From NCBI GenBank assembly GCA_030765645.1, contig JAVCCE010000007.1:62001-126000 (forward strand): 64,000 nt of DNA, given 5' to 3'. Positions 4,717 to 47,782 of the stretch are shown piece by piece (the first letter of the stretch is position 1; each line of letters begins with the position of its first letter). Made by a program: the position numbers and the translations under genes. Origin of the DNA: Candidatus Hinthialibacter antarcticus. Lineage in GTDB: Bacteria; Hinthialibacterota; Hinthialibacteria; Hinthialibacterales; Hinthialibacteraceae. Below the pieces are notes generated by a model. That model saw only the letters and a list, made by a program, of their open reading frames with translations. It had not been told where the DNA came from and ran no database searches.

Positions 4717-4832
4717 GGCGGACAAACGACCCAGCGTTGTTTGACCGTCTGAGCACCAGCGTTGTTTGCTCCCAAAAGCCTAGCGCTGATGCTATAGTTT
4801 CTCCCGACTCAAATCTAAATTGTGAAATCCAA

Positions 4833-5909
4833 ATGTATATTACGAAACCAAAACTTCGCTACTTACTGTTTTATGTAACCTCGCGCTGCAACTTGCGCTG
4901 CAAACACTGTTTTTACCTGGACGAATTGAACAAGCACGACGAAATGTCGTTGGAAGAGATCGAAAAGGTCGCCAAAAGCCTTTATCCGCTCAATTTTGTC
5001 CGCATGACTGGCGGGGAGCCGTTTCTGCGAAAAGACCTGCCGGAAGTCGTCCATGCGTTTTATGAACAGGCAGGCGTACGCCGCATGGGGTTAATCAGCA
5101 ATGGAACACGCCCTGAGTGGGCGGAAAAGGCCGTACGGCGCACGTTTGAACTTAACCCCGACGTCACCCTCGATGTTGGCATCTCCGTCGACGGACTCGA
5201 ACCAGACCACGATGAAATTCGCGGATTGAAAGGCTCTTACGCAAACGCCAAGCAAACCGCAGAAACCTTAGTCCGGCTGCGCGATGAATTTCCCAATTTG
5301 CTTACGTCCCTGGTGATGACGGTCACTTCGAAAAACGAAAACTCGCTGGACGAATTTTATGATGAGGTTTCGTCTTGGGGCGTGGACCGCCTTTCGGTCA
5401 ATCACGTGCGGGGAAAGGTGCATGAAACCTCGCTGCTTGAAGTCTCATTTGAGCGCTATCAAGAATTCGCCCAGCGCTGTGAAAACTACCACCTTGAACA
5501 TGACCGCAGCTGGAAAGCCAGCGTACAACGCGCCAAAAACCGCGTGGCGCAAAACGCCATCGCTGAAGTGGTCGGCGGAGATAACTCACGCGTCTCGTGT
5601 TTGGCGGGTTCAGCCATCGGGGTTTTGTATTCCGACGGCGAAGTCAACGTCTGTGAGATGTTAGAGGGCGAATTGGAAGCAGTCGAAGGCATCCCTACCC
5701 CGAATTCCGCATTGGGCAACATTCGCGACGTTGACCATGATTTCTACCGAATCTGGCATTCAGAAAACGCCGAACGCTGCCGCCAGTGGATCAAAGCAAC
5801 CAATTGCTCATGCAGCCATGAGTGCTTTTTGACCGCCAGCATTCTATTCAACCCAAAAAACTACCCCCGCCTCGCCGGAGAATGGCTCAAACTAGCCGTT
5901 TCTAAGTAA
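4833..5909 (+). CDS. Radical SAM protein with SPASM-type C-terminus
   Basis: The open frame begins at 4737, but ATG 4833 begins the conserved core, giving 358 residues; no clear Shine-Dalgarno marks either start. CNLRCKHC (C19, C23, C26) binds the SAM [4Fe-4S] cluster and MTGGEPF is the usual GGEP motif. The C-terminus has further Cys (SCLAGSAIG, NVCEML, and a Cys-rich CSCSHEC segment), as in SPASM/twitch proteins that hold auxiliary clusters and often modify peptides or sugars. No precursor peptide gene is evident next to it, so the substrate is unknown. Confidence 0.85.
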   Translation: MYITKPKLRYLLFYVTSRCNLRCKHCFYLDELNKHDEMSLEEIEKVAKSLYPLNFVRMTGGEPFLRKDLPEVVHAFYEQAGVRRMGLISNGTRPEWAEKAVRRTFELNPDVTLDVGISVDGLEPDHDEIRGLKGSYANAKQTAETLVRLRDEFPNLLTSLVMTVTSKNENSLDEFYDEVSSWGVDRLSVNHVRGKVHETSLLEVSFERYQEFAQRCENYHLEHDRSWKASVQRAKNRVAQNAIAEVVGGDNSRVSCLAGSAIGVLYSDGEVNVCEMLEGELEAVEGIPTPNSALGNIRDVDHDFYRIWHSENAERCRQWIKATNCSCSHECFLTASILFNPKNYPRLAGEWLKLAVSK

Positions 5910-6928: not shown

Positions 6929-6958
6929 TCCTCTTATCAAAAACATCGTTCTACACAG

Positions 6959-7003
6959 CGCGGGTACATCTCTCTTCGCTTTGGTGCGGGCTTTCAGGCC
7001 GTT
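6959..7003. repeat. Degenerate partial copy D of the 80-bp palindromic repeat
   Basis: GCGCGGGTACATCTCTCTTCG followed by TGCGGGCTTTCAGGCCGTTTTG resembles the first half of copy B at 41427 (GGCATGGGTACAACTCTGC...GTGCGGGCTTTCAGGCC). The distal arm is missing or unrecognisable. Confidence 0.5.
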
Positions 7004-7052
7004 TTGAATGCCTTCTATAGTGGTTACCAGAATTATGTGCGGATTGAGGTCG

Positions 7053-7146: not shown

Positions 7147-7848
7147 CTAAGAAGCAGTCGCTTTTTCGGCTTCCATTTCTGCTTTCAGAATATCAATTTC
7201 TTTGAGCAACACGTCGGCGGCTTCTTCGATGGAGACCACGCGGACTTTCTCGCCTTTTTTGAAGAGCATTCCCTTCTGGTCGCCGAAGGCGATGCCGATG
7301 TCAGCCGCCTTGGCTTCACCGGGGCCGTTGACCTCGCAGCCCATCACGGCGACATCGAGCGGCGCTTCCATTTGCTCTAAGCGGCCTTCAATCGAACGAA
7401 CCATTTCAGGAAAATCAGTGCGACATCGCGCACAGGTCGGGCAGGAGATGATGCGAATGCCGCGTGAACGCAGTTCCAGCGAACGCAGTAAATCGGCGAA
7501 CGATGGCAAGTAATCTTTGGCGTCTACCTGGTCAGGCAAAATCACCACTAGGTCTTCTCCCGTCCAGCGGTAAAGCACCGGGGAAAGATACACCAACAAA
7601 CGCGGTAACTCGCGTTCGGTGAATCCACGCAGGTCAAGCAGGATGCGCTTGGCGGAAATGTCGCCTACCGTTTCCATCAGTTTTAATACGTCTTGGAATG
7701 ATAAAACGCGCAGCTCGTTGATGGGCAGCGCCATGGGGTCCGGCAATGATTCATAGCCGTCGCACAGCGTCGGCGACACCTCATTGCGCATTTGGTTGGC
7801 GCGTTCGTCTTCCGCAGCAACTTTCAGATTTACAGAATACAGCGACAT
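7147..7848 (-). CDS. Stand-alone IspG-like [4Fe-4S] domain protein
   Basis: The last hundred of 233 residues match the C-terminal cluster-binding domain of IspG/GcpE (4-hydroxy-3-methylbut-2-enyl diphosphate synthase, MEP pathway). All cluster ligands are present: C136 and C139 in SCPTCARC, C171 and E178 in MGCEVNGPGE, followed by the usual IGIAFG and LFKKGE. The N-terminal (about 130 residues) has no recognisable IspG TIM barrel; it may be a remnant of the extra A* domain found in three-domain IspG. AGCGAGGACG lies before the ATG, so the short start looks genuine, and the upstream gene ends only 20 bases earlier, leaving no room for a frameshifted barrel. It may be a reductase or electron-transfer module, or a partner of an IspG encoded elsewhere. 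It lies downstream of a radical SAM gene. Confidence 0.75.
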   Translation of the reverse strand: MSLYSVNLKVAAEDERANQMRNEVSPTLCDGYESLPDPMALPINELRVLSFQDVLKLMETVGDISAKRILLDLRGFTERELPRLLVYLSPVLYRWTGEDLVVILPDQVDAKDYLPSFADLLRSLELRSRGIRIISCPTCARCRTDFPEMVRSIEGRLEQMEAPLDVAVMGCEVNGPGEAKAADIGIAFGDQKGMLFKKGEKVRVVSIEEAADVLLKEIDILKAEMEAEKATAS

Positions 7849-7868: not shown

Positions 7869-9359
7869 TTAAGCCGCTTTCGACGCTGGCTCAACATTTG
7901 ATTTGGTTTCAGATTTTGAACCCGAGCGCCAAGTAAGACTTAGCAGATTTCGCGCACGTTGCATGGCGGCGCTCAGGTAATTCAACGCTTTGCCGGGCGA
8001 ACCAGCGTTGCGAAGCGTACGTATAATATAGTGCGGTCTCAGGTACATCGTCCAGAGCGCTTTACGGCGCCAGCGCTCTAACTGGTCGGGCGAGAGCGAT
8101 TCGGTCGATACCGCACCCACCGCATACCCGCCGTTGCTGAGGCGCTCACGGATCACCAGATTCTTCTCGCCGACGATCTTATCGAGTTCCGTCCCTGGAA
8201 GCGGGAACACCATATTAAAATCAAAGAAGTCCGGGTCGAGTTCTGAGGCGAACTGAATGAGTTCGCGAATGGTCTCGTCGGTGTCCCACGGATAGCCGAA
8301 CGTCAAAAACGCATGAGAGCGCACATTCAATTTTCGGCACAGGGCCACTGCTTCACGGGCCTGGGCGCCAGTCGCGCTTTTTTTGATCGACTTGAGATGC
8401 TCGTCATTGCCGGTTTCGACGCCGAAGCCAATCACCCAACAGCCAGCGCGTTTCATCCAGATAAGGCGCTCTTCGTCGAGGGTATCAACGCGGCTGTTGC
8501 ATCCCCAACGGATATCCAATTTTTTCTGGACAATCAATTGGCACAAGCGGATCACCCAATTTTTGTTGAGCGTAAAGGTGTCGGCGTGAAAGAGAAATTC
8601 GTGAATGCCGTGCTCGCTCATACAATGCTCTAACTCCGCGACCACGCTCTCCGGCGTTCGGTAGCGGACGTTTGTCCCGGTCATGGCGGGAACCGAGCAG
8701 AAAATACACTTGAACGGGCAGCCCAACGAGGTAACGACCGTCGTCAGTTGGTTTCTGGATTCCGGGCTGCGATACAAAGTCACGTCCGTCAGATGGCGCG
8801 CGGGAAACGGAAGTTCGTCTAAATTCAAGACGGCGTTTTCTGATGAGGTACGGACAACCTCGCCGTCGCGCAAGAAGGTCAATCCAGGCAATGACGCCCA
8901 ATCGCTTCCATCGACAAAGCGCTCGATATACGCCTCGACCTCGCCGCGTAGAACCGCATCGAGTTCGGGGTTGCGCTTGATGATCTCTTCATCCATGTAA
9001 TGCAGCGGTTCGCCCTTGGCGGCGGTGACGGCGTTCGGACACAGTTCTTTGATTAAACGCGCGGCTTGCAGGTCATTGTCGAGAGTAGCGATTGTCGCGG
9101 TGAATATCGCATAGTCGGGCTGAAATTCGCGGACATCATTTTCGAGATGATGAAAGTCCGCGTTCATAGCGGGGTAGTCGCGTACGCGAACTTCGCAGCC
9201 CGCGTTTTCTAAAATTGAAGCGTTATACAGCAATTCCATCGGGGGGAAGACCACGTTGACCGTCTGATCTTCCACCTTGTTTTGGCAGCGATTATCGCGC
9301 CGGTACAGCCCCGACGGCGGATTGAATAATAAAATACGCTTCATATTTTTGTTGAGCAA
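7869..9359 (-). CDS. B12-binding-domain radical SAM protein
   Basis: About 496 residues. An N-terminal Rossmann-like region (KRILLFNPPSGLYRR, residues about 7-150) resembles the cobalamin-binding domain of B12-radical SAM enzymes, and CPFKCIFC (C214, C218, C221) is the SAM cluster motif. GFGVETGN and HAFLTFGYP follow in the SAM barrel. Members methylate, ring-contract or build C-C bonds in lipids and natural products (HpnJ-like, BchE-like). The frame's first start is a TTG 4 bases after GAGG that overlaps the upstream stop region; ATG 9344 is equally possible. It sits between a TPR lipoprotein gene and the IspG-like gene, suggesting one transcript. Confidence 0.85.
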   Translation of the reverse strand: MLNKNMKRILLFNPPSGLYRRDNRCQNKVEDQTVNVVFPPMELLYNASILENAGCEVRVRDYPAMNADFHHLENDVREFQPDYAIFTATIATLDNDLQAARLIKELCPNAVTAAKGEPLHYMDEEIIKRNPELDAVLRGEVEAYIERFVDGSDWASLPGLTFLRDGEVVRTSSENAVLNLDELPFPARHLTDVTLYRSPESRNQLTTVVTSLGCPFKCIFCSVPAMTGTNVRYRTPESVVAELEHCMSEHGIHEFLFHADTFTLNKNWVIRLCQLIVQKKLDIRWGCNSRVDTLDEERLIWMKRAGCWVIGFGVETGNDEHLKSIKKSATGAQAREAVALCRKLNVRSHAFLTFGYPWDTDETIRELIQFASELDPDFFDFNMVFPLPGTELDKIVGEKNLVIRERLSNGGYAVGAVSTESLSPDQLERWRRKALWTMYLRPHYIIRTLRNAGSPGKALNYLSAAMQRARNLLSLTWRSGSKSETKSNVEPASKAA

Positions 9360-41322: not shown

Positions 41323-41426
41323 AATTAGGTTTACTTTAGGTTCTTCCGGTATTTGGATACTTTATCACAAATTGAATTGCGTTTTTTTGACGCTTTTTCG
41401 TAAATCCTTGATCTTTCGCTGTATCA

Positions 41427-41506
41427 GGCATGGGTACAACTCTGCTCGCTTCAGTGCGGGCTTTCAGGCCCTTATGCACAGGCGCTCCCAGAGTTCCACC
41501 CACGCC
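41427..41506. repeat. 80-bp palindromic dispersed repeat, copy B
   Basis: GGCATGGGTACAACTCTG to GAGTTCCACCCACGCC is nearly the reverse complement of copy A at 822-901. It stands between murB and engB, both on the minus strand. Its flank GATTGGTTTGTC also matches copy A's ACAAACC-like flank, so similarity extends slightly past the arms. Confidence 0.8.
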
Positions 41507-47677: not shown

Positions 47678-47699
47678 AAGCCATCCTTTCGCTGCAAGC

Positions 47700-47745
47700 A
47701 GCATGGGTACAACTCTGCTCGCTTCCGTGCGGGCTTTTAGGCCGT
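47700..47745. repeat. 80-bp palindromic dispersed repeat, partial copy C
   Basis: AGCATGGGTACAACTCTGC then TGCGGGCTTTTAGGCCGT repeats the first 46 bases of copy B (41427). The rest of the unit is missing, so it is a truncated copy. Confidence 0.7.
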
Positions 47746-47782
47746 AATTTTCAGACTCAATGTTTTTGAGACGGCTTCTCGA

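What the first reader, a model, noticed from the sequence alone, without database searches (positions are those of the whole stretch)
7147..7848. Orphan IspG-like [4Fe-4S] domain lacking the substrate-binding barrel
The protein keeps the three cluster Cys (C136, C139, C171) and E178 of IspG, but the TIM barrel that binds the cyclodiphosphate substrate is absent and the upstream gene leaves no space for it. It sits next to a B12-type radical SAM gene. It could form a split IspG with a barrel encoded elsewhere, or a repurposed redox module serving the radical SAM enzyme.
Basis: partly seen in the sequence, partly recalled or inferred. Interest (0 to 1): 0.55.

Follow-up and report, generated by a model that had tools for sequence, protein, structure and literature searches.

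The report
IspG enzyme split into two genes
In one lineage of uncultured bacteria an isoprenoid enzyme that is normally a single protein appears to be encoded as two proteins by two separate genes, one with the substrate-binding half and one with the iron-sulphur half; I did not find this described in the papers I could search.

Summary
In detail: window 7147-7848(-) encodes an IspG [4Fe-4S] domain (C136, C139, C171, E178) without the substrate-binding barrel. It is not an orphan. The same genome has the other half as a separate gene on another contig (G000:C24, about 11.8-12.7 kb): a stand-alone IspG TIM barrel that stops where the Fe-S domain would begin. Ten of 14 genomes of the class (three families) have this arrangement; three have one-piece IspG and one has no match. 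Near-invariant IspG residues divide between the two proteins: six substrate/catalytic residues in the barrel, four cluster ligands in the other. The window's genome has Dxs, Dxr, IspF and IspH matches and no HMG-CoA reductase match, so the two halves are its only IspG candidates. Best explanation: a two-subunit IspG with an inter-subunit active site. The neighbouring radical SAM gene accompanies the Fe-S gene in one family only (6 of 6), not seen in the other two (0 of 4, partly short contigs). Residues 1-117 are a conserved alpha/beta domain of unknown origin, without detectable sequence match to the barrel. Assembly and activity are untested.

The parts
7147..7848 (-). Gene for the Fe-S subunit of a two-gene IspG (233 aa plus stop)
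   Evidence: ATG start shared in register with the relatives
7498..7848 (-). Residues 1-117: conserved N-terminal alpha/beta domain of unknown origin, predicted as four beta-alpha units in the full-length model
   Evidence: model, mean pLDDT 78.0; this part about 36-85 by blocks of ten; alone, mean pLDDT 59.2, second strand not seen; no Pfam match; no sequence match to the barrel
7192..7497 (-). Residues 118-219: IspG [4Fe-4S] domain
   Evidence: Pfam GcpE 241-342; Aquifex IspG 3noy, E 3.2e-26 over residues 86-221
7432..7443 (-). C136-P-T-C139: first two cluster cysteines
   Evidence: Invariant in the ten aligned Fe-S proteins and in 104 of 104 one-piece IspGs
7336..7338 (-). C171: third cluster cysteine
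7315..7317 (-). E178: glutamate ligand of the cluster
   Evidence: role in the family from PMC11218510 passages
7869..9359 (-). Context only, not claimed as a part of the enzyme: B12-binding radical SAM gene directly upstream
   Evidence: Pfam Radical_SAM and B12-binding; adjacent in the six f1 genomes only

Best explanation
The gene encodes one subunit of a two-protein IspG (HMBPP synthase, MEP pathway). The other subunit is a stand-alone IspG TIM barrel encoded on another contig. Shown by sequence: both halves exist, each as an intact conserved ORF, in ten genomes, and the conserved IspG residues are divided between them without loss of the substrate-binding or cluster residues. Inferred: the Fe-S subunit docks over the open end of the barrel, MEcPP bound in the barrel coordinates the cluster by displacing E178, and reductive ring opening proceeds as in ordinary IspG. 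In ordinary dimeric IspG (recalled from the crystal-structure papers, which I could not open) the Fe-S domain of one chain covers the barrel of the other chain, so the catalytic contact is already between chains and splitting the chain need not disturb it. The N-terminal domain of the Fe-S subunit probably replaces contacts that the missing second barrel would have made (inference).
For: Own genome holds two PF04551 genes and no more: barrel (profile 1-251, in two pieces of one frame) and window ORF (241-342). Ten of 14 genomes of the class have the same pair, on different contigs in each. All 43 genomes outside the class with a match have a frame that carries barrel and Fe-S parts together. 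Of 41 near-invariant barrel columns (>=93% of 104 one-piece IspGs), 35 are kept in 10 of 10 barrel proteins, and of 19 Fe-S columns 18 are kept in 10 of 10 Fe-S proteins. Residues equivalent to T. thermophilus R56, R110, R141, K204, E232 and R260 (roles from passages of PMC11218510) are R94, R140, R167, K215, E243, R271 of the window genome's barrel. Dxs, Dxr, IspF and IspH are matched in the window's genome and HMG-CoA reductase in 0 of 14 genomes. Both parts of the Fe-S protein change mostly at synonymous sites where this can be measured.
Against: No expression, interaction or activity data. The two genes are not neighbours in any of the ten genomes. IspH was not found in G009, nor IspF and Dxs in G007 (fragmented assemblies). 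IspD and IspE were not searched. In the Fe-S tree (112 columns) the f3 protein does not group with the other nine, so one origin for the Fe-S half is not shown. I could not model the complex: the barrel came from the genome search, whose sequences the structure tool does not accept.
Confidence: 0.88

Rival explanations
1. The Fe-S protein has left IspG and serves another partner, such as the adjacent B12 radical SAM enzyme, and the barrel works with something else or is unused.
For: Adjacent, same strand, 20-base gap in the window; the adjacency holds in 6 of 6 f1 genomes. A relative of this radical SAM lies about 4 kb from the barrel gene in G006.
Against: The radical SAM is not beside the Fe-S gene in the four f2/f3 genomes, as far as their contigs reach. 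All cluster ligands and the surrounding IspG motif are kept, and no other IspG Fe-S domain exists in the genome.
Confidence: 0.05
2. Both halves are decaying leftovers and the lineage makes isoprenoids another way.
For: None found.
Against: No HMG-CoA reductase match in 14 of 14 genomes, IspH matched in 12 and IspF in 13 of 14; intact ORFs with catalytic residues kept across three families; mostly synonymous change in the pairs that are not saturated.
Confidence: 0.03
3. A one-piece ispG is present but was missed in assembly, and the two short genes are extra.
For: All are draft assemblies (the window's genome: 78 contigs, 96.49% complete).
Against: It would have to be missed in ten of ten genomes of the three families, while it was found in three of the other four genomes of the class.
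Confidence: 0.03
4. The two products are joined after translation (split intein) or their messages are trans-spliced.
For: A sub-threshold Pfam Hint-domain hit (PF14623, E 0.033, 14.4 bits against a cut-off of 27) in the barrel ORF.
Against: That hit lies inside the ordinary first part of the barrel and is far below cut-off; neither short ORF has room for an intein; the two halves overlap at the end of the barrel's last helix (both keep an L..L.LR segment) rather than abutting.
Confidence: 0.01

Closest known systems
Two-domain IspG/GcpE (Aquifex aeolicus 3noy, Thermus thermophilus 4g9p/2y0f, E. coli)
   Same: Barrel and Fe-S sequences, substrate-binding residues, three Cys and one Glu cluster ligands; NCBIfam two-domain model PRK00366 is the best model for both halves, though below its whole-protein cut-off; 3noy is the best solved relative of both.
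   Different: Two genes on different contigs instead of one; a 28-residue insertion after the first barrel unit (41 residues where 104 of 104 one-piece IspGs have 13); an extra N-terminal domain of about 117 residues on the Fe-S protein.
Three-domain IspG, A-A*-B (Bacteroidota, Chlorobi, Verrucomicrobia, Chlamydiae; PMC10663253 section 3.5 read)
   Same: An additional alpha/beta domain stands in front of the Fe-S domain; A* is described as a TIM-barrel fold of unclear role.
   Different: Here barrel and Fe-S domain are on separate chains, and the extra domain is about half the size recalled for A*. The NCBIfam three-domain models match only the Fe-S part of the window protein (residues 119-216 and 120-225).

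Membership tests
IspG (HMBPP synthase) | [4Fe-4S] ligands: three Cys and one Glu | tested here: met
   C136, C139, C171, E178 invariant in ten Fe-S proteins
IspG (HMBPP synthase) | TIM barrel with substrate-binding Arg/Lys and catalytic Glu | tested here: met
   Met by the partner protein, not by the window protein: all six residues kept in 10 of 10 barrel proteins from nine genomes
IspG (HMBPP synthase) | Barrel and Fe-S domain on one polypeptide (known two- and three-domain forms) | tested here: not met
   Separate ORFs on different contigs in ten of ten genomes
IspG (HMBPP synthase) | MEP pathway context | tested here: met
   Dxs, Dxr, IspF, IspH matched in the window's genome; HMG-CoA reductase in 0 of 14 genomes; IspD and IspE not tested
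IspG (HMBPP synthase) | Conversion of MEcPP to HMBPP; barrel of one chain covered by Fe-S domain of another | not testable with these tools
   Needs biochemistry or a structure of the complex
Three-domain IspG | A* domain in front of the Fe-S domain | tested here: inconclusive
   Three-domain models match only the Fe-S part; residues 1-117 predicted as beta-alpha units but with no sequence match to the barrel and no convincing fold match alone

The most novel reading that the evidence does not exclude
An obligate heteromeric IspG that arose by duplication of a one-piece gene and complementary loss: one copy kept the barrel, the other kept the Fe-S domain on a shrunken, non-catalytic half-barrel. 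It would then be a second, independent route to the 'catalytic barrel plus helper barrel plus Fe-S domain' layout of three-domain IspG, and it would fix which parts of the homodimer are dispensable.
Probability: 0.3. Interest if true: 0.7.

Novelty: new variant of a known kind. Interest (0 to 1): 0.6.

Why it matters
A 2023 survey of 4,400 bacterial species called IspG evolutionarily rigid and recognised only two-domain and three-domain forms (PMC10663253; passages and section 3.5 read). A two-gene form held across three families is a third architecture. It separates the substrate-binding and redox halves of the enzyme naturally, so the docking of the Fe-S domain on the barrel, electron delivery and cluster loading could each be studied on separate proteins. 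For annotation: each half alone scores below the whole-protein cut-offs of the NCBIfam IspG models, so such genomes could be reported as lacking IspG.

Tried and rejected
Assembly error or frameshift: rejected, since the arrangement recurs in ten genomes and the stops are in place. G003's barrel gene is cut by a contig break (pieces on C26 and C176); I left it out of the barrel alignment and did not join the pieces. G008 has two barrel copies, both kept.

Other stand-alone Fe-S domains: of the 80 best loci of the genome-contig scan (a capped list, 486 relatives in all), three are split, and by contig name and length they are G006, G007 and G009 of this same set; 74 have the CPxC motif at least 232 residues into the frame; L066 only looks short because of a run of N in the scaffold; L071 and L089 escaped the motif scan but have the barrel directly upstream. 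In 290 genomes searched with the Fe-S alignment, 259 match; of 150 rows printed, the ten split ones (which built the model) score 266-374 bits and the next 155; 139 of the other 140 printed rows lie in frames of at least 333 aa, one is an 86-aa piece (G287:C121); further rows were not printed. So rarity is shown only for what was listed.

Residues 1-117 as a remnant of the barrel: tested and not supported by sequence. Profile alignment runs on to residue 83 but shuffling columns 1-117 leaves the score unchanged (315.8 against 315.7 +/- 1.7, 60 shuffles). The full model gives four beta-alpha units and aligns to IspG throughout (4g9p Z 14.9, rmsd 3.9, 223 aligned), but alignment rows of one-piece IspGs from about residue 83 on were in that prediction. 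The domain alone is poorly predicted (mean pLDDT 59.2) and its matches are weak and mixed (Foldseek: none at E<=0.001; best VIA Z 6.3, rmsd 3.3, 101 aligned, an aminopeptidase). Half-barrel therefore stays a hypothesis.

Fe-S tree: 112 columns, mostly unresolved; the ten Fe-S proteins need two changes on it, not one.

Literature: searches gave no description of a split IspG in the listings seen; the library lacks most subscription papers, including the IspG structure papers.

Full report
Observation. The ORF at 7147-7848(-) encodes 233 aa. Pfam GcpE matches residues 118-219 at profile positions 241-342 of 343 (118.6 bits, cut-off 32). C136, C139, C171 and E178 are present and invariant in the ten relatives aligned. 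There is no barrel upstream: 14 codons of open frame precede the ATG, then the B12-binding radical SAM gene 20 bases away.

The other half exists. A search of the window's own genome (5.15 Mb, 78 contigs, 96.49% complete) with PF04551 gave three matches: one in the window ORF and two in a single frame on contig C24 that covers profile positions 1-251. From its ATG that protein has 301 aa and ends ...LGLPRFAFKP-stop, just after the last barrel helix. The two genes lie on different contigs; by their positions in C7 (146,064 bases) and C24 (33,995 bases) at least about 81 kb separates them.

It is a fixed trait of a lineage. In one search, G000-G009 (families f1, f2, f3; ten genomes) each have a barrel-only frame and a short Fe-S frame on different contigs. 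In the same class G010, G011 and G012 have one-piece IspG and G013 (84% complete) has no match. Outside the class 43 of 47 genomes have a match, each with a frame that carries the barrel together with the Fe-S part; two of these (G039, G046) have long frames (582 and 671 aa) with two matches, as expected of the three-domain form. That is the depositors' label; I did not establish the window's taxon.

Division of the active site. I aligned 104 one-piece IspGs (104 of 111 candidate loci passed a motif and length filter), ten barrel proteins (nine genomes; G008 gives two, G003 is cut by a contig break and left out) and ten Fe-S proteins. Of 61 columns conserved in at least 93% of the one-piece proteins, 41 lie in the barrel, 19 in the Fe-S domain and one at the junction. 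The ten barrel proteins all keep 35 of the 41; the six that differ are mostly conservative or lie next to the insertion. The ten Fe-S proteins all keep 18 of 19. T. thermophilus R56, R110, R141, K204, R260 (substrate) and E232 (catalysis), as named in passages of PMC11218510, correspond to R94, R140, R167, K215, R271 and E243 of the barrel protein; the numbering agrees with the 2y0f alignment. The cluster ligands are in the Fe-S protein.

Need for an IspG. In the 14 genomes of the class: IspH in 12, IspF in 13, Dxr in 14, Dxs (N-terminal domain) in 13, HMG-CoA reductase in 0. The window's genome has the first four. Among the ten split genomes IspH was not found in G009, nor IspF and Dxs in G007. 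IspD and IspE were not searched.

Lineage-specific changes. All ten barrel proteins have 41 residues where 104 of 104 one-piece IspGs have 13, a 28-residue insertion after the first barrel unit. In the barrel tree (90 rows: 10 plus 80 of the 104) the split barrels form one clade (SH-aLRT 99) with f1, f2 and f3 branching as their families do, and the one-piece IspGs of the same class lie elsewhere (quick method). The Fe-S tree (112 columns) does not unite all ten: the f3 protein stands apart, next to one-piece rows, with weak support. So a single, vertically inherited split is supported for the barrel and unresolved for the Fe-S half.

The N-terminal domain of the Fe-S protein. Residues 1-117 have no Pfam match (three proteins tested, E<=10). 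Profile comparison aligns residues 83-135 with the end of the barrel (E 1.4e-5), but the signal comes from residues 118 on: shuffling columns 1-117 leaves the score at 315.7 +/- 1.7 against 315.8. The AlphaFold2 model of the whole protein (mean pLDDT 78.0, pTM 0.62) shows strand-helix four times before the Fe-S domain; all nine Foldseek matches at E<=0.001 are IspG, and VIA-align gives 4g9p Z 14.9, rmsd 3.9, 223 aligned, then Fe-S domains of sulfite/nitrite reductases at Z 9.6 or less over residues 127-232. Predicted alone, the domain has low confidence (59.2) and weak mixed matches. Four beta-alpha units would fit half a TIM barrel, but a remnant of the IspG barrel is not shown. Between-species change in this part is mostly synonymous in the three pairs that are not saturated (dN/dS about 0.09, 0.46 and 0.17; the 0.46 pair is nearly identical), against 0.04-0.19 for the Fe-S part in five pairs; two of the five N-terminal pairs are saturated at synonymous sites.

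Neighbourhoods. The radical SAM gene is next to the Fe-S gene in the six f1 genomes and was not found beside it in G006-G009, whose fetched stretches are 16.0, 11.4, 10.0 and 8.2 kb. Against a clean dismissal: a relative of it lies about 4 kb from the barrel gene in G006. The barrel gene starts within or at the stop codon of an upstream gene of about 600 aa in nine of ten genomes; that gene is an O-antigen ligase with TPR repeats by Pfam in the two tested (G000, G006). In G000 dxr is on the same contig as the barrel gene (C24:2961-3338).

Mechanism. Most likely the two proteins together are the cell's IspG. In ordinary dimeric IspG the Fe-S domain of one chain covers the barrel of the other (recalled; the structure papers were not available), so the active site is already formed between chains. 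The split enzyme would use one barrel subunit and one Fe-S subunit per active site, and the N-terminal domain of the latter would hold the pair together. The first statement rests on the sequence evidence above; docking, stoichiometry and the role of the N-terminal domain are inference.

Novelty. Two-domain and three-domain IspG are known (PMC10663253 section 3.5), and that survey calls IspG evolutionarily rigid (passages). I found no account of a split form in six full-text searches or in the passages read of PMC13001223, PMC12648460 and PMC9919496. I class it as a new variant of a known kind.

Noticed in passing
window 6943-7005, 41413-41475, 47686-47748: A 63-base interspersed repeat in three copies (71-100% identity to the reference copy), one of them just beyond the 3' end of the Fe-S gene.
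   Followed up: no
G000:C75:32956-33981 and relatives: The IspH match spans about 1,015-1,030 bases in the six f1 genomes but about 815 in the three f2 genomes, so IspH also seems to differ between the families.
   Followed up: no
G000:C24, L044:6824-9531: The barrel gene begins at the stop codon of an O-antigen-ligase/TPR gene, an arrangement seen in nine of ten split genomes; next upstream in G000 is a BatA-domain protein.
   Followed up: partly
window 4737-5909: A radical SAM/SPASM gene, below the cut-off of every NCBIfam model shown in the listing.
   Followed up: no
L053 and L054 (G008): Two closely similar barrel genes in one genome bin of 8% contamination; duplication or a second strain.
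   Followed up: no
L051:12839-14299 (G006): A B12-type radical SAM relative of the window's 7869-9359 gene lies about 4 kb from the barrel gene, in a family where the Fe-S gene has no such neighbour.
   Followed up: no
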